Assembly (NCBI GenBank): GCA_012519705.1
Contig: JAAYPR010000026.1
Coordinates: forward strand, 1-36,511
Direction of reading: 5' to 3'
Source: Campylobacteraceae bacterium
GTDB taxonomy: Bacteria > Campylobacterota > Campylobacteria > Campylobacterales > Campylobacteraceae
DNA: 36,511 nucleotides
The notes below the pieces were generated by a model, which was not told where the DNA came from, made no database searches, and saw only the letters and a program-made list of their open reading frames with translations. This document shows, piece after piece, positions 281 to 24,459 of the stretch. A program made the translations under genes and the position numbers. How positions within the stretch are numbered: the stretch's first letter is position 1; each line of letters begins with the position of its first letter.

Positions 281-2380
281 CTAGTCTATCTCATTCCCAA
301 ATTGCTTTTCTAAAGTTTGTCTTGCCAAGCCTACAATATAAGGAATATCATCCATTGAATTTAGTTCTATTTCTGTGTCTCCATTGCCCCAAGTCCCTAT
401 ATTTGATACATCTCTACATAGTCCTTTAGAATCTTCTAGCTCATTTAGTGGCATATTTATATAAACCTTTATGTTCTTAACTTGCGGAACAATATCTACA
501 AAATTTGTTTCAGCCTTGTAGGCAACATATTGCTTTAAAAATTCCTCTGTAATGTTTGGATCTAGAGACATTATCTCTTTTCTAAATTCTTCAAAAATTT
601 CTTTATTTTGTGCATTTAAAAGGTTTGGATGGTCATCAATAGTGTATGTGCTATCTGAAATTTTAGGCTCTTTATAGGTTTCTAAAATAGATGCTTCTAA
701 TTTCGGATAAGCCCACACTTCAACTGCTTGATTTGACAAGATAGAAGCCCTTTCTTTTATAGCATCTTCGTTCCAATTTGAGTTAAAATTTCTCAAAAAC
801 CCATTTAGTCTTAAAGGACTCATAGCAAAACCGCCCTGCATATCTCTTTTTTCTTCAAAAGACTTATCGCTATACTCAGAGTTATATCCGGTAAGAGTTA
901 GATTGCCCAATGTATGAAGCCATTTGGTTTGAACTTCTTGCCAATTTTCTCCCAAAGCTTCTTGCCACTTTTTTGACAAATCCTTATTTTGAGGCATAAT
1001 GTGCTCAATAGTGTAGTCATTAACATTCACTCTCTCTTTCCTGCCAAAATTCTCGAATCTCCTTAGCCAGTAGCTTCTATTTCTAAAATTATATAAATCT
1101 CTTGTTATCAACTCTTTCTTAAACTCATCATCTGTTGGAAATCTTTTGTATGATGTTAAAAGTGAAAAGGTCGCTTGAATACTTTCTAAATACCTATCTT
1201 TTTTAACCGATTTTGTGAAATTTGCAAATGTTTTGTTAAGTGAGTTTGTAGGAATTGCACAAACTGATCTTCTAAAGACATAGCTTTCTATTAACCTTAT
1301 AATCTTTACAAAATCATCTTTAGATAAACAATCGTTTTCATAATCATTATAAAGCTCTAATAACATTGGATATGCAACATCGACTTTTAACTCTTTTAAA
1401 TCTCTAAAAGCATATGATAGTTCCTTATCCTCTTCCTTTCCTAAATCCATTTTACAAAAATACTTAGAATAAACTCTTATATCAGCCACCAAAGACTCAA
1501 TAGTCAAACCCTCGCTTCTATGATATTCTTTAAAAGCGTCATAAACATTACTTATCTTTGGAATTTCTTTTGTTTTTACAGTTAGATAATGCCTCATAAA
1601 TGCATCAAAATCTTTTTGATAAGCCTCTTGCCCAAAATCAAGTTCCATTGGTCTCCAATACTTCTGATATAATTCCGTTTGAAGTTCAGGCTCTAATCCC
1701 ATTAAAATATAATTTCTAATCAAATCCGCTTGAGCTAGCTCTTTGCCCGTTGAGTTCATGCTTTCAAAAATCAGCTGAGGATTATCATGCTGCCTATCAA
1801 GTGAAATATCTACAATGAGTAGTTTTGATAAGCCTTTACAAACAACCTCAAGATTATATATATTTTCACTAAGCTTCTTTTTAAAAAACTCGTAATTCTC
1901 CATTATTCTAAGAGAGTATTTTTCTGGAAAATTCGCCTTATCTTTGTCAATAAGAGCTATTAAAGTATCTTTATCGGTTTGAGACAGTATAAGCTTGTAT
2001 TTTCTACTATCCTTTTTTCTAGGATCCATAAGATAAAAATCTCTTATTTCTTCTTTTGAAAAACCATCCATTATCTCTTGATTATCACTCAATAAATCAG
2101 ATAGTGCAGTTAAAAGCAATATAATTGTCGTAAGTCTTTGTTGACCATCTATAACCAAAAGCGGAGATTGTGCCGTAACCGAGTATTGACCATCTTGAAC
2201 ATACACAATAGAACCAATAAAATGAGCTTTTATACTATCATTAGAACCAGCCCTTAAAATATCTTCCCATAGCTGCAAACACTCTTTTTCTGTCCAACTA
2301 TAAGCCCTTTGATAAATTGGTATTACAAACTGCGAAGACTCATATATAAATTTAAGTAAATTTGCCTCAACTGCTTTCAT
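281..2380 (-). CDS. GmrSD-like DUF262/DUF1524 nuclease with C-terminal DUF5655 domain
   Basis: A 699-aa protein. The N-terminal DUF262 (ParB/Srx-like NTPase) shows IPIYQRAYSW at 20-29, DGQQRLTTI at 78-86 and FESMNSTGKELAQADLIRNYIL-type motif at 205-226. The DUF1524 His-Me-finger nuclease domain shows IEHIMPQ at 458-464 and LGNLTLTGYNSEYSDKSFEEKR-type motif near 491-512, which are its catalytic and structural motifs. Residues about 595-695 resemble DUF5655. Fused proteins of this kind include GmrSD type IV enzymes, which cut glucosylated or otherwise modified phage DNA, and BrxU. Here it is a single-gene system without a methylase. The start is well supported by an AAGGA site just upstream and a TATAAT box at 2418-2423. 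The target specificity cannot be read from sequence. Confidence 0.9.
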   Translation of the reverse strand: MKAVEANLLKFIYESSQFVIPIYQRAYSWTEKECLQLWEDILRAGSNDSIKAHFIGSIVYVQDGQYSVTAQSPLLVIDGQQRLTTIILLLTALSDLLSDNQEIMDGFSKEEIRDFYLMDPRKKDSRKYKLILSQTDKDTLIALIDKDKANFPEKYSLRIMENYEFFKKKLSENIYNLEVVCKGLSKLLIVDISLDRQHDNPQLIFESMNSTGKELAQADLIRNYILMGLEPELQTELYQKYWRPMELDFGQEAYQKDFDAFMRHYLTVKTKEIPKISNVYDAFKEYHRSEGLTIESLVADIRVYSKYFCKMDLGKEEDKELSYAFRDLKELKVDVAYPMLLELYNDYENDCLSKDDFVKIIRLIESYVFRRSVCAIPTNSLNKTFANFTKSVKKDRYLESIQATFSLLTSYKRFPTDDEFKKELITRDLYNFRNRSYWLRRFENFGRKERVNVNDYTIEHIMPQNKDLSKKWQEALGENWQEVQTKWLHTLGNLTLTGYNSEYSDKSFEEKRDMQGGFAMSPLRLNGFLRNFNSNWNEDAIKERASILSNQAVEVWAYPKLEASILETYKEPKISDSTYTIDDHPNLLNAQNKEIFEEFRKEIMSLDPNITEEFLKQYVAYKAETNFVDIVPQVKNIKVYINMPLNELEDSKGLCRDVSNIGTWGNGDTEIELNSMDDIPYIVGLARQTLEKQFGNEID

Positions 2381-2740: not shown

Positions 2741-3640
2741 ATGAAAATAAAACAACAATCAAAACGGCTAGATAGAGTTCATGATATCTTAAAGAGAATT
2801 TCTAAAACACCACTAACTATGAGTGAGTTAGCTAAAATTTACGGTGTCAGCACCAAGACTATCCAAAGAGACTTTAATGAGTATTTAAGCCATTATGGAG
2901 CTGTGAAAAAAGGCAGAAAATTAAGCATAAGAGATGTGGATACAAATATAGATAGTGATGATAAAATCGTCATAAACATCCTTGATAATATGGCAAAATC
3001 CCTTGGTTTTGAGTTTTATAATAAAGCTCATGTTTTGCTAAAAGGCATCACTTATCAGCTAAACCAACCCATCATAACGCACATTAGCAGTGAAGAACTA
3101 GATGAGAAAAGCTTAGAAAATTTCACCACACTAGAGAGTGCTATCAGTGAAAAAAGAGTGGTAGAGTGCAGGTATAAAAACCATAAATTTAGAGTCTTGC
3201 CTTTAAAACTTGCTATGTTTGAGGGGTTTTGGTATCTACTGCTTTTTGATACAAATGATAGCGATAAATTTAAGAAATTTTACCTAAGTGGAATTTCTGA
3301 TATAAACCCACTTGATGAGAGCTTTGAAATTTCGCAAGAGACAGAGAGTAGGCTAGGTAGGATAAACTCAGCTTGGGCGACCCTAGATAAGCCAAAAACA
3401 GCAACGCTTTTGCTTGATAAGCAGATAGTTAAATACTTTAAAAGAAAAGAGTATGCCAAACAAACTCTTAGAAGAGAAGCAGGAGATGGCTCGGTGGAGA
3501 TAGATATAGAATATACTGATTTAATGGAGATAAAACCACTAGTGTATTATTTCCTACCTTTTATAAAAGTGATTGAGCCAAAAGAGTTAGCTGATGTTAT
3601 CAAAAATGAAATGCAAGGTTATTTAGATGAAATATGCTAA
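2741..3640 (+). CDS. WYL-domain transcriptional regulator (HTH + WYL)
   Basis: A 299-aa protein. The N-terminal winged HTH at about 10-55 contains MSELAKIYGVSTKTIQRDF, a DeoR/HTH_11-type recognition helix. The WYL domain at about 120-190 contains ECRYKNHKFRVLPLKLAMFE then FWYLLLFD, and a WCX-like C-terminal part follows. WYL proteins sense ligands, often nucleic acids or nucleotides, and act as local repressors or activators. Some control BREX and CBASS loci. This gene lies between the GmrSD-like nuclease and a convergent unknown gene. It is a distant paralogue of the regulator at 23443-24315. The upstream ribosome site is weak (AAGGCA). Its target is unknown. Confidence 0.85.
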   Translation: MKIKQQSKRLDRVHDILKRISKTPLTMSELAKIYGVSTKTIQRDFNEYLSHYGAVKKGRKLSIRDVDTNIDSDDKIVINILDNMAKSLGFEFYNKAHVLLKGITYQLNQPIITHISSEELDEKSLENFTTLESAISEKRVVECRYKNHKFRVLPLKLAMFEGFWYLLLFDTNDSDKFKKFYLSGISDINPLDESFEISQETESRLGRINSAWATLDKPKTATLLLDKQIVKYFKRKEYAKQTLRREAGDGSVEIDIEYTDLMEIKPLVYYFLPFIKVIEPKELADVIKNEMQGYLDEIC

Positions 3641-19911: not shown

Positions 19912-20095
19912 AAACGGCTTAGATAGCTCACTAACTCCGTTTAAAACATCTTGCACTTTTTATAAATAATCGTTTTTGGATTATAATAATTTCAAAACGA
20001 ATTTAAATTTAGACTTTTTGTGTTATTTAAAATGAGATATAAAATTCCATTATAGGAAATTAACTTGATAAGCTAGTATTAAGTGTAAAATTTTA

Positions 20096-20130
20096 CAAAA
20101 GATAGGGCAAATTAATTTCCCTATCTTTTG
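20096..20130 (-). terminator. Terminator of the three-gene operon, overlapping the last codons
   Basis: A 12-bp perfect stem (20096-20107 with 20119-20130) with an 11-base loop. On the minus strand the 5' arm covers the final codons and stop of the 527-aa gene and is followed by a T-rich tract. It can also serve the plus strand after ubiX. Confidence 0.75.
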
Positions 20131-21704
20131 CCAGCAATCATTTCTTTTAACTCTTTTTCTATATATTCATCAACTTTTTTAGCATCTATTTCACCAACAT
20201 TATGCCAAGCATTAAGCTCTTTTAATCCAAGATAACCAAATCCAACCCAAGCTATTAAATTTGATCTAAGTAAAAAATTTACTATCTCTCCACCACTTTT
20301 AGCCTTTGCATCCACTCCATCTATTATACAAAGCGTCCCGTGTCCGACTAAAAGCATACGCCTAAGTTCTGGAATATCTGCTTTTGGGAGGCACTCCTCC
20401 CACTCTTTTTCATGATAAAATCTTGCTTTTACAACATACATAACTCTTATAAGTAACTCTGTTATCAAAATAGGTATCGACATTGTCACCCCATGTCTAA
20501 AGTCATAACCTTCTTGAAAAACAATAGTGCATATTTCTGCAAAACTATAATAAGGATTCTTTGGTTTACCTTTTTTTGGCTTATGTTTAAATTTTCCAAA
20601 TTTTAATAATAAAAGTAATTCATAAAATGGTATTGGTATTCCGCTTCCCCTATTTCCTTTTTCTATTGTGCTATTTGAGCCAGCCAAATCAGATATAATG
20701 TGCCCTATCCAATTACAAAAACCACAAAAAATTTTAGCAACAAAATTATTACCGCGAAGCTCAAAAGTTTCTGTATCTATAGTAATAATTTTCCCATTAC
20801 TAACAAATGATGATGTGCTGGTAAACTGATTATATATCGAAAAAAATAAACCTATTAAATCAGGTGAATGACCCAAGCTTTTTAAACGATGATTTGTTGT
20901 AGATAAATCCTCTACTTTTCCGCCTGTTCCTTTGTTGCCGTTTGTGCTGGCTTGGTCATAATTTATTATAAATTTTTTTTCTAAAAATTGAATTAAATTC
21001 TTTCTATAATAACTTTTAAAATCTAAATACTCCTCCCTTTTGGCTATCTTTTTCTTAACATAGTTTTTATATTTTTCTTCTATTGCTTTCTTATCAAAAC
21101 CTAATAGAAAAGCTATTTTTTCTACAAAAACAAAAGTCTTTTCATCTATAAAACTACCAAGAATACTTTCGCTAGGCTTTCCGCTGGCAGTAGCCTTTCC
21201 AACAAACAAAACATCTATAATCCCACCTATAACGCCACAAGTTCCAGCTATCATATAGTCATATTTATCACATTTGGCGTTTTTGTATGTAAAATCTTCT
21301 TTTATTCTTTTTTGAAGCTCAAGAAGTTGGGAATTTGACATCAAATTTCTAAATGGGTCATCTGTCAAATCTATATTATGCTTTATTGCATATTTTTCTA
21401 CCGATTCTAGATATTCAGACCATGACATATCATCACGAAAATCAATCTGCTCTATGGTATCAATAGTTTTAATTTCTGCAACCAGTAAAAATTTTTCTTC
21501 TTTAGTATCAGTGCTTTTTATATCGCTATTTTCATCTTTAAAACTATCTACTAAATTTTGCATTTTAGAAAGCATTCTTTTTTGACGTGAAATTCTCTCA
21601 TTTAAGGCACTGTTTAGTTCTGCTGTTTTTTTAAATGCATTATCTAGTTGATGTTTTTGAACCCTTATGGAGTTTGCTTCTTCTTCTAAATATTTTTTAT
21701 TCAT
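20121..21704 (-). CDS. Uncharacterised membrane protein with coiled coil and NHR/GHSPD histidine motifs (third gene of WYL operon)
   Basis: A 527-aa protein. Residues 1-57 form a coiled coil. A hydrophobic, glycine-rich span lies at about 147-170, and further spans are likely near 405-425 and 485-497. The core carries NHRLKSLGHSPDLIG (271-285), WIGHIISDLAGSN (332-344), GSGIPIPFYELL (353-364), FRHGVTMSI (402-410) and VGHGTLCIIDGVDA (453-466). This pattern of His and Asp suggests a metal site or hydrolase core in or near the membrane. From memory the motif NHR-x3-LGHxP recurs in unnamed proteins of gut bacteria; that needs a search. Its start overlaps the stop of the 581-aa gene by 4 bases, which implies translational coupling. 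No known function. Confidence 0.85.
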   Translation of the reverse strand: MNKKYLEEEANSIRVQKHQLDNAFKKTAELNSALNERISRQKRMLSKMQNLVDSFKDENSDIKSTDTKEEKFLLVAEIKTIDTIEQIDFRDDMSWSEYLESVEKYAIKHNIDLTDDPFRNLMSNSQLLELQKRIKEDFTYKNAKCDKYDYMIAGTCGVIGGIIDVLFVGKATASGKPSESILGSFIDEKTFVFVEKIAFLLGFDKKAIEEKYKNYVKKKIAKREEYLDFKSYYRKNLIQFLEKKFIINYDQASTNGNKGTGGKVEDLSTTNHRLKSLGHSPDLIGLFFSIYNQFTSTSSFVSNGKIITIDTETFELRGNNFVAKIFCGFCNWIGHIISDLAGSNSTIEKGNRGSGIPIPFYELLLLLKFGKFKHKPKKGKPKNPYYSFAEICTIVFQEGYDFRHGVTMSIPILITELLIRVMYVVKARFYHEKEWEECLPKADIPELRRMLLVGHGTLCIIDGVDAKAKSGGEIVNFLLRSNLIAWVGFGYLGLKELNAWHNVGEIDAKKVDEYIEKELKEMIAGKR

Positions 21705-23446
21705 TTTGAAGACCCGCCTATTTTATTAGTAACACTACTAAATCCTTCTTGAACTTTACTTTTTAATGAAGAGCTTATTTCAAAGTATCCAATACTTAAA
21801 AATATATTAGCCATTTCTTCTAGTGTTTCCGTTTTTATAGTTTCTTTGAGGAAAAATTGAGTTTTATCATCCTCTGTTTCTTGTTCTTTATAATTTTCCA
21901 TTATAAAATCGAAATACAATTTATATTCAGATGAATTTGTAAGATTTTTTAATTTTGCCACATCTAATGGTTCTGGACATCTCATTCTATTTTTATAATT
22001 TTGATACAAGTCTTGCTTATCTGTCATTGATTTGGCTGCACCGGTAAAACTAAAAATCATTTTTTCTAGCAATGTTTTATTATAATTTGAATTATTAAAT
22101 TTTAAAACAATCTCATTAATAATATCAATAATATTATTAATACTTTTTTGTGTTTGTTTGATTGCTTCATGAAGCATAAGCTCTCTTTGTTTATATTTGT
22201 TTGTTTTGTTGCTCCCTGTTATATATCTAACACCTTGATATGTTCCAACACCGATTAAAATAGCGACACCTATACCAGTTACCATAGATGAAAAACCAAG
22301 CAACCCTCCCATTCCAAGAGCTGCTAAGCCAGATGTGATACCAGGAGCGCTAAATCCCACAACAGAACCTGACATATATAGTGCACCAAGAGGAACACCT
22401 ACACTAGATGCTCTTGCGGCAACATCTTTAAATAAAGATTTTATTTTATCATCATCTAAATTATCATGAAGTATAGAGTAGTCTTTTTTAACCGCCTCAA
22501 ATACAAACTCTATATCGCTGTCATTTAATCCAAATAGTTTTTTATTTTTTTGCAAAACAGCTATATCTTCTAAATTTGCTTTTTTAAATTCTTTTACACT
22601 TGTAAAATGTATGTGTATAATATCTTTTATTAATGAAATCATCATTGATTTTAATTGTGACGACTGGCAATTTTCTTTTATAATCTCTACAAGCTCTTGT
22701 GAGTTTATTAGATTATCTTCATCTATACTAGACATATACATTGCAACATCAAATATATTTTCTTTTCTAAGCTCAATTCTATCCATTAAAAAAAAGAGTT
22801 CAGCTGATTCTTTTGAGTCAAGCTTTCCATCATTTAAAAAAGCCATATTTATAATGGTTTTTACATAGGCTATTTTTAGTTCATTTGACATATCGTTGAT
22901 AATTTGTAGCTGATTTTCATCTTTAAAATTATCATATTTTATAATTTCATTTATAAACTCAGCAAAAAATTCACCGTCATAAAGAGCGAAATATTTAATT
23001 TGAAAAGGCTCTCTGTTCTTAAAGTAAATTTCTATATAGTCATAATCTAGTTTTAATTTACCCTTTTTATCTAGCTTCATCTTTTTTTCATACTTAGCAC
23101 CAGAAATTTCATCATATACGAAAACCATAGGTTTTTCTAAAAAACTTTTATAAAACACTCTAGTACCGGTAAATACAAATCCCTCACTAAAAGAGCCTCT
23201 AAGCGTTGTATCAACAATAGCTATGATAGAAGAGCAATACTCTTCATCTATATTAAAAACCTTTGATACTTTATCTAAATATCCTCTGTCGATTGGCGAT
23301 GTAAAAATTTTACAAGAAGCAATAGCTTCCATCTTATTTCCTACTTTGTCTAAAAAACTTAATTTTTCATCAGGCAGTTGTTGTTCTGAATAATTTCTAT
23401 CCATTCTCTTAACATTATCCCTAATGTATGTATTAACAGTGCTCAT
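21701..23446 (-). CDS. Uncharacterised PH/TerB-like protein with glycine-rich membrane hairpin (second gene of WYL operon)
   Basis: A 581-aa protein. Residues 80-170 look like a bacterial PH-type beta domain (GSFSEGFVFTGTRVFYKS to FALYDGEFFAEFINEII). Residues 185-320 are helical and TerB-like, with an acidic motif LNDGKLDSKESAELFFLMDRIEL at 204-226. Residues 345-410 are rich in glycine, serine and small hydrophobics (GMGGLLGFSSMVTGIGVAIL) and probably form two membrane helices. The rest is helical and charged, ending in a GSSK tail. TerB folds occur in tellurite-resistance and several anti-phage systems. It overlaps the WYL gene by 4 bases upstream and the 527-aa gene by 4 bases downstream. 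Domain calls are by eye and need profile searches. Confidence 0.85.
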   Translation of the reverse strand: MSTVNTYIRDNVKRMDRNYSEQQLPDEKLSFLDKVGNKMEAIASCKIFTSPIDRGYLDKVSKVFNIDEEYCSSIIAIVDTTLRGSFSEGFVFTGTRVFYKSFLEKPMVFVYDEISGAKYEKKMKLDKKGKLKLDYDYIEIYFKNREPFQIKYFALYDGEFFAEFINEIIKYDNFKDENQLQIINDMSNELKIAYVKTIINMAFLNDGKLDSKESAELFFLMDRIELRKENIFDVAMYMSSIDEDNLINSQELVEIIKENCQSSQLKSMMISLIKDIIHIHFTSVKEFKKANLEDIAVLQKNKKLFGLNDSDIEFVFEAVKKDYSILHDNLDDDKIKSLFKDVAARASSVGVPLGALYMSGSVVGFSAPGITSGLAALGMGGLLGFSSMVTGIGVAILIGVGTYQGVRYITGSNKTNKYKQRELMLHEAIKQTQKSINNIIDIINEIVLKFNNSNYNKTLLEKMIFSFTGAAKSMTDKQDLYQNYKNRMRCPEPLDVAKLKNLTNSSEYKLYFDFIMENYKEQETEDDKTQFFLKETIKTETLEEMANIFLSIGYFEISSSLKSKVQEGFSSVTNKIGGSSK

Positions 23447-24315
23447 AATGTTTTCTCCTTTTCCAAATAAATTTCAAGATTTTTAATTAATTTCTCTTTT
23501 AAATAAAGTGGTTCAAGTATGCTGATGTGTGGCAGCCAAAACAATACTAAGCCTAAAATTTCAGGCTCAAAGGCTGATTTCATCTCTAGGATAATATCCC
23601 CGTTTTCTAAGGTTTCTAAAATTCGTTGATTTGGAAAAATTTCCCTTCTTTGTATAAACTCGCTAATTTTTTTGTCAGCTTTTAGTTTTACGGTTATTAG
23701 ATTTTCAGAGATAAAAGTTTTGTTTTCTTTGATTAAAGCTTCAAATTTAGACTCTTTTTTAAATTTTTCGCCAAATTTTAAGTTAAAAACTTTACTAATT
23801 GTAAAGTTTTTTATAGTTTCATTTTCAACCGCCACTAAATACCAAATTCCATTTAAATTTAGTAGTTTATAGGGTTTTATAATTCGTTCTTTTTCGTTGT
23901 AGGTGAAATGTAAAGTTAAATTTTCTTTTATAGTTTTTTGAAGTTTTTTAAAAAGTTTTTCATCTATGTTTTCATAGTTAAATCCACTTACTAAATTTGT
24001 ATCATTTAACAAAATTTTATAGTCTATCTTTGGATAAAGACCGTAAATACCGCTCTTTTGACTAAAATTTGCAAGTTCGTAGTTTTTGATATTTGGTAGT
24101 GTTTTTAGAAAATACTCGCTATTTTCACAAGTTATAGGTAAATTTGAAAGTCGTTTGTTTAAATCTTCTCTGATGGTTCTTGTGGTTACGCCAAACTCTT
24201 TACTAAGCTCATCAACTTTTAGTCTCTCACCTAACAGAAGTCTTGTGATGATATTACTAAGTCTAAAGCTTAGTTTATCGTGGCTTTTAGGTTTGTCTTC
24301 TGTTGGAGCTTTCAT
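23443..24315 (-). CDS. WYL-domain regulator leading the three-gene operon
   Basis: A 290-aa protein. The N-terminal winged HTH contains VDELSKEFGVTTRTIREDL (about 38-56). The WYL domain contains LHFTYNEKERIIKPYKLLNL and IWYLVAVE (about 135-175), and a C-terminal WCX-like extension follows (ISEFIQRREIFPNQ to LPHISILEPLYLKEKL). AAGGA stands 8 bases before ATG. It is the first gene of the operon, so it likely controls itself and the two membrane proteins. WYL regulators of this build (CapW, BrxR) repress CBASS and BREX operons. Here the same role is inferred from position. It is a distant paralogue of the regulator at 2741. Confidence 0.88.
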   Translation of the reverse strand: MKAPTEDKPKSHDKLSFRLSNIITRLLLGERLKVDELSKEFGVTTRTIREDLNKRLSNLPITCENSEYFLKTLPNIKNYELANFSQKSGIYGLYPKIDYKILLNDTNLVSGFNYENIDEKLFKKLQKTIKENLTLHFTYNEKERIIKPYKLLNLNGIWYLVAVENETIKNFTISKVFNLKFGEKFKKESKFEALIKENKTFISENLITVKLKADKKISEFIQRREIFPNQRILETLENGDIILEMKSAFEPEILGLVLFWLPHISILEPLYLKEKLIKNLEIYLEKEKTL

Positions 24316-24331
24316 CTAAATTTTCCTTTTC

Positions 24332-24389
24332 AAATTAAGTTGTTTGTTATATCAAGATTAATTATCAAAAACCCAAACTTGCTTAATTT
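24332..24389 (-). promoter_or_regulatory. Promoter region of the WYL operon with an inverted-repeat candidate operator
   Basis: Perfect 8-base half-sites AAATTAAG (24332-24339) and CTTAATTT (24382-24389) lie 42 bases apart and flank a -10-like TATAAC on the minus strand (24346-24351). A second candidate, TATAAT, lies at 24397-24402. The arrangement suits autoregulation by a dimeric regulator, but AT-rich DNA gives such repeats by chance. Confidence 0.35.
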
Positions 24390-24459
24390 TTATAAAATTA
24401 TACCAACCACAAATGCAAGGTTGCTTCATTTTCAGTAAATTTCATTTATAAGCTTAAAA

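What the first reader, a model, noticed from the sequence alone, without database searches (positions are those of the whole stretch)
20121..24315. Candidate undescribed WYL-controlled two-membrane-protein system
Seen: three minus-strand genes with two ATGA-type 4-base overlaps, a single promoter region and one terminator, coding a WYL regulator, a PH/TerB-like protein with a glycine-rich membrane hairpin, and a coiled-coil membrane protein with clustered histidines. They sit between ubiX and an unrelated operon, like an insertion. Established: WYL regulators such as CapW and BrxR control CBASS and BREX defence loci, and TerB-like folds occur in stress and anti-phage systems. Inference: a sensor (TerB/PH) signals to a membrane-acting effector, for example by changing membrane potential or by hydrolysing a lipid or nucleotide. 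There is no nuclease, helicase or ATPase.
Basis: partly seen in the sequence, partly recalled or inferred. Interest (0 to 1): 0.85.

Follow-up and report, generated by a model that had tools for sequence, protein, structure and literature searches.

The report
WYL-linked Bunzi anti-phage defence operon
The three genes are an intact copy of Bunzi, an already named two-protein bacterial defence against viruses, with a regulator gene added in front, so the operon is real and probably defensive but not undescribed.

Summary
In detail: three minus-strand genes with two 4-base overlaps, a strong terminator-like hairpin and low GC encode a WYL regulator, a PH/TerB/Gly-rich-hairpin protein and a coiled-coil membrane protein. 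The claim 'undescribed' fails: the last two match, nearly full length, the PADLOC models of the named anti-phage system Bunzi (BnzA E 5.7e-141, BnzB E 2.9e-175). The defence guess is thereby supported. Adjacent bnzA-bnzB pairs occur in 12 intact loci across Campylobacterota, Gammaproteobacteria, Bacillota, plasmids and phage-like contigs. Two points go beyond the label. (1) In ten loci the BnzB core sits beside another hairpin protein, PADLOC candidate PDC-M09A, instead of BnzA, and there it always lacks the roughly 145-residue N-terminal region that it has in all 12 BnzA loci. (2) The WYL gene is a general Campylobacterota defence regulator, also found beside Eleos, HerA-like and other defence genes, present at four of five intact Campylobacterota Bunzi loci. 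The mechanism is inferred only: BnzA senses, BnzB acts in the membrane. Novelty is modest.

The parts
23443..24315 (-). WYL-domain transcription regulator (HTH-WYL-WCX), first gene of the operon
   Evidence: homologues 39-42% identical beside other Campylobacterota Bunzi loci
21701..23446 (-). bnzA: PH-like + TerB-like + Gly-rich hydrophobic hairpin + helical tail, 581 aa
   Evidence: PADLOC PDLC03833 BnzA E=5.7e-141, residues 1-565 on model 1-539 of 544; fold evidence
20121..21704 (-). bnzB: N-terminal coiled coil + membrane core with invariant Asp/His, 527 aa
   Evidence: PADLOC PDLC03834 BnzB E=2.9e-175, model positions 7-502 of 504; alignments A1, A6
20097..20129 (-). terminator-like inverted repeat AAAAGATAGGG - 11 nt - CCCTATCTTTT overlapping the bnzB stop codon
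   Evidence: sequence; fold -18.7 kcal/mol, z -4.9, 0 of 200 shuffles as stable
24316..24459 (-). 144-base gap upstream of the WYL gene, presumed promoter/operator (not demonstrated)
   Evidence: promoter-like hits not above shuffles

Best explanation
This is an intact, probably horizontally acquired Bunzi anti-phage system (BnzA + BnzB) with a WYL regulator as first gene of the operon. Shown: match to the named system, pairing of the two genes across phyla, domain anatomy. Inferred: the WYL protein keeps the operon low and releases it on a signal; BnzA sits at the membrane through its hairpin and senses infection with its PH/TerB part; BnzA then switches on BnzB, whose membrane core, bearing invariant Asp and His residues, damages the membrane or acts on a membrane-linked substrate and so stops the phage or the infected cell. 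The BnzB N-terminal coiled-coil region is the predicted docking site for BnzA, because it is present in all loci with BnzA and absent in all loci with the alternative partner M09A.
For: Near full-length PADLOC matches to BnzA and BnzB. Adjacent bnzA-bnzB in 12 intact loci from several phyla, plasmids and phage-like contigs. Patchy distribution: clear BnzB-family genes in 3 of 153 genomes of the family, one of them divergent and beside M09A. Low GC. Defence genes beside relatives: type I restriction next to L043 and L007, PDC-M40B near L040. A WYL gene within about 4 kb in four of five intact Campylobacterota Bunzi loci although those genomes hold only 1-3 WYL domains each. Same WYL clade beside Eleos, HerA-like, mad2-like and PDC-M40B genes. 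Repression of a defence locus by a WYL protein is established for BrxR (PMC9122601). PH-like and TerB-like folds in BnzA. BnzB residues D146, D149, D164, D250, H272, H279, H335, S338, D339, D401 and R403 are kept even in distant relatives with the other partner.
Against: No experiment on this copy. No fold match for BnzB, so its activity is unknown. The direction of signalling (BnzA to BnzB) and membrane damage are inference. Most Bunzi loci outside Campylobacterota have no WYL gene nearby, so the regulator is optional and its role here is untested.
Confidence: 0.85

Rival explanations
1. On the effector step: BnzB is a membrane-embedded, metal-dependent hydrolase (lipid or nucleotide substrate) gated by BnzA.
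For: Three His and at least six Asp invariant across divergent relatives despite partner change; motif-order resemblance to YdjM (Asp pair, then His pair, then H-x3-D-x3-SG), seen by eye.
Against: Profile comparison with YdjM gives probability 0.2%; no Pfam hydrolase match; no fold match.
Confidence: 0.35
2. On the effector step: the BnzA hairpin and BnzB together form a pore or otherwise depolarise the membrane on infection; the conserved polar residues serve assembly or ion passage.
For: What both partner types share is a protein with a Gly-rich hydrophobic stretch plus the BnzB core; hydrophobic segments in both proteins.
Against: Conservation of many Asp/His residues is more typical of a catalytic or metal site; no channel fold match.
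Confidence: 0.4
3. The operon is a membrane stress module unrelated to phages that merely resembles Bunzi.
For: TerB-like and PH domains also occur in stress proteins (general knowledge).
Against: Near end-to-end match to both Bunzi proteins, patchy distribution, defence neighbours of relatives, carriage on plasmids and phage-like contigs.
Confidence: 0.05
4. An undescribed system.
For: Pfam and NCBIfam give no usable model for genes 2 and 3.
Against: PADLOC BnzA and BnzB models match over nearly the full length.
Confidence: 0.02

Closest known systems
Bunzi (BnzA + BnzB), Millman et al. 2022
   Same: Both proteins, nearly full length, same gene order bnzA then bnzB, TerB-like domain (TerB is listed for Bunzi in PMC10952713)
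   Different: This copy starts with an overlapping WYL gene that most copies outside Campylobacterota lack
PDC-M09 (PADLOC phage defence candidate M09A/M09B)
   Same: M09A partners a BnzB-core protein in ten loci and also carries a Gly-rich hydrophobic segment; the C-terminus of one such BnzB matches M09B
   Different: M09A is shorter with no detected PH/TerB part, and its BnzB lacks the N-terminal region
Eleos (LeoA + LeoBC, dynamin-like)
   Same: LeoBC shares a weak match with M09A (E 5e-9) and with a plasmid BnzA fragment (2.7e-4) in their Gly-rich parts; same WYL clade beside it in L117
   Different: No GTPase in this operon; similarity limited to Gly-rich segments, possibly compositional
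BrxR/CapW-type WYL regulators
   Same: HTH-WYL-WCX layout, gene at a defence locus (PMC9122601)
   Different: Operator, ligand and repression untested here; not shown to belong to the BrxR family proper

Membership tests
Bunzi | BnzA protein (PADLOC model PDLC03833) | tested here: met
   E 5.7e-141, model positions 1-539 of 544
Bunzi | BnzB protein (PADLOC model PDLC03834) | tested here: met
   E 2.9e-175, model positions 7-502 of 504
Bunzi | bnzA and bnzB adjacent, same strand | tested here: met
   4-base overlap at 21701-21704; same arrangement in 11 other intact loci
Bunzi | TerB-like domain in BnzA | tested here: met
   2h5n aligned over 131 residues, Z 7.1 (TerB-like assignment of 2h5n from memory); DUF533 match in two relatives, best E 1.3e-4. 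Moderate: Pfam TerB itself not matched
Bunzi | protection against phage | not testable with these tools
   needs an experiment
BrxR/CapW-like WYL regulator | HTH + WYL + C-terminal WCX domain | tested here: met
   PF08220, PF13280, PF25583, all over cut-off
BrxR/CapW-like WYL regulator | represses its own operon at an inverted-repeat operator | tested here: inconclusive
   only a 7-bp AT-rich repeat found upstream; repression not testable here
YdjM-like membrane hydrolase (PF04307) | profile similarity of BnzB to PF04307 | tested here: not met
   no Pfam hit; hhalign probability 0.2%
PDC-M09 | M09A partner beside the BnzB-type gene | tested here: not met
   window has BnzA and no M09A

The most novel reading that the evidence does not exclude
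Bunzi is one member of a wider set of modular systems in which a shared membrane core (BnzB) is combined with interchangeable hairpin partners (BnzA with PH/TerB sensing, or M09A), the BnzB N-terminal region being the docking part that comes and goes with BnzA; BnzB would be a new kind of membrane effector, and the WYL protein a plug-in regulator shared by several defence systems.
Probability: 0.45. Interest if true: 0.55.

Novelty: new member of a known kind. Interest (0 to 1): 0.3.

Why it matters
Bunzi has no known mechanism. The partner swap seen here points to the part of BnzB that should contact BnzA and to the residues that should do the work, which makes the mechanism directly testable. 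It also links an uncharacterised candidate system (PDC-M09) to a named one.

Tried and rejected
Pfam, NCBIfam and PDB sequence searches for BnzA/BnzB gave nothing usable. The weak LED_rpt match (E 0.0014, far under its cut-off) appeared in one of 14 family members only and was dropped. YdjM homology for BnzB, suggested by motif order, was tested with a profile comparison and not supported. Fold search with the BnzB model found no convincing relative (model pLDDT 73, pTM 0.58, 14 sequences), which does not exclude a known fold. BnzA and M09A align only in a short helical stretch after the hairpin (probability 68%), so common descent of the two partners is not claimed. Empty-site comparison was inconclusive because the two flanks are not neighbours in relatives. 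A Bunzi-specific WYL protein was considered and rejected: equally similar copies (39-41%) sit elsewhere. No operator-like repeat of note upstream of the WYL gene. The original Bunzi paper is not held.

Full report
Observation. The first has HTH, WYL and WCX domains. A hairpin overlapping the stop of the last gene folds far better than shuffles (-18.7 against a mean of -7 kcal/mol), so one terminator is credible; a promoter is not shown. The operon's GC is 27.5-30% over 20-24 kb against 33-41% in the flanking kilobases. The host is a 1.7 Mb genome that I take, from gene content, to be a Campylobacter-like member of Campylobacterota (inference).

Identity. PADLOC models name gene 2 BnzA (E 5.7e-141) and gene 3 BnzB (E 2.9e-175), both nearly full length. 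These are the two proteins of Bunzi, which PMC10952713 lists as a phage defence system with a TerB domain, citing Millman et al. 2022; it is reported on Salmonella IncHI1 plasmids (PMC11305592) and in Aeromonas trota (PMC11206119), and its mechanism is called unknown in a 2026 review (PMC12926258). The original paper is not held. So the system is not undescribed.

Distribution. In the host's family, clear BnzB-family genes occur in 3 of 153 genomes (a fourth match, G002, is a marginal hit to a 2351-aa frame). One of the three, G010, is divergent and stands next to M09A. In a phylum sample of 397 genomes, clear matches are in the window genome, G075, G307, G312, G370 and G418; G370 is broken by stops. 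Adjacent bnzA-bnzB pairs with open frames were found in the window, G075, G307, G312, G418, Agitococcus, Aerococcus, a Vibrio plasmid, a Lactococcus plasmid and three phage-like contigs.

Two partner types. BnzB homologues in seven clostridial contigs, a Lactiplantibacillus plasmid, a viral contig and G010 have no BnzA beside them; they sit next to PDC-M09A. With BnzA, 143-169 residues precede the D-x-x-D-Y motif of BnzB in all 12 loci; with M09A, 20-56 residues in all 10. Relatedness means these are not 22 independent events, but each type spans several lineages. M09A has a LeoBC-like match in its Gly-rich part (E 5e-9), and a plasmid BnzA fragment a weaker one.

The WYL gene. Four of the five intact Campylobacterota Bunzi loci have a WYL gene within about 4 kb, in different relative positions, though these genomes contain only one to three WYL domains. 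WYL genes also lie near four M09A-type loci and the Lactococcus Bunzi. Relatives of the window's WYL protein occur in 88 of 200 Campylobacterota genomes. In ten neighbourhoods of its close relatives none has Bunzi; four have PADLOC families among the neighbouring genes scanned: PDC-M40B, Eleos LeoBC-LeoA, a HerA/mad8-like protein and a mad2-like protein. So this is a shared defence regulator, not a defining Bunzi part. Repression by a WYL protein at a defence locus is established for BrxR (PMC9122601).

Structure. The BnzA model (pLDDT 72, six sequences) has a PH-like domain (3dcx Z 8.7; 3hsa Z 8.4) and a region matching 2h5n (Z 7.1), which from memory belongs to the TerB-like superfamily. The hairpin itself is poorly predicted (pLDDT under 50 at 358-415). 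The BnzB model (pLDDT 73, pTM 0.58) is helical with a long N-terminal helix; no fold relative was found.

Mechanism. Best reading: BnzA is the sensor and membrane anchor, BnzB the membrane effector, the BnzB coiled-coil region the contact. Because a protein with a Gly-rich hydrophobic stretch plus the BnzB core is what the two partner types share, I place the executing step there, and sensing in PH/TerB. Whether the step is catalytic or a pore is open; I give 0.35 and 0.40. A YdjM-like hydrolase was tested and not supported by profile comparison. The confidence of 0.85 refers mainly to the identity as a Bunzi operon with an added regulator; the mechanistic steps are inference.

Verdict. Good observation, plausible defence guess, wrong about being new. 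Interest 0.3, mainly for the partner swap.

Noticed in passing
window 284-2380 (-) and 2741-3640 (+): A GmrSD-type restriction protein (PF03235 + PF07510 + DUF5655; PADLOC Orf5/HEC-06) diverges from a second WYL regulator: a second WYL-linked defence locus on the same contig.
   Followed up: partly
L045 3175-7480 (G010:C17): In another genome of the same genus a WYL gene (apparently split by a frameshift) is followed by a divergent BnzB and PDC-M09A.
   Followed up: partly
L117 1311-6240: Eleos LeoBC-LeoA genes followed by a 101-aa ORF and a WYL gene of the same clade as the window's.
   Followed up: partly
L019 4100-7401: On a Klebsiella IncHI1B plasmid the Bunzi locus looks broken: a 189-aa BnzA-like ORF, an IS3 transposase, then BnzB; BnzB matches occur on 491 plasmid records, 270 of them Enterobacter.
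   Followed up: no
L020 2025-3856: Between the WYL gene and bnzA of a Lactococcus plasmid lie a 234-aa ORF and a 372-aa second BnzB-like protein (E 1e-17).
   Followed up: no
L041 6550-7254: An unclassified 234-aa ORF sits between the WYL gene and bnzA; no Pfam or PADLOC match.
   Followed up: partly
window 19912-24459: The two flanks (ubiX side and glycosyltransferase side) are far apart in four related genomes, so the operon lies at a synteny break.
   Followed up: partly
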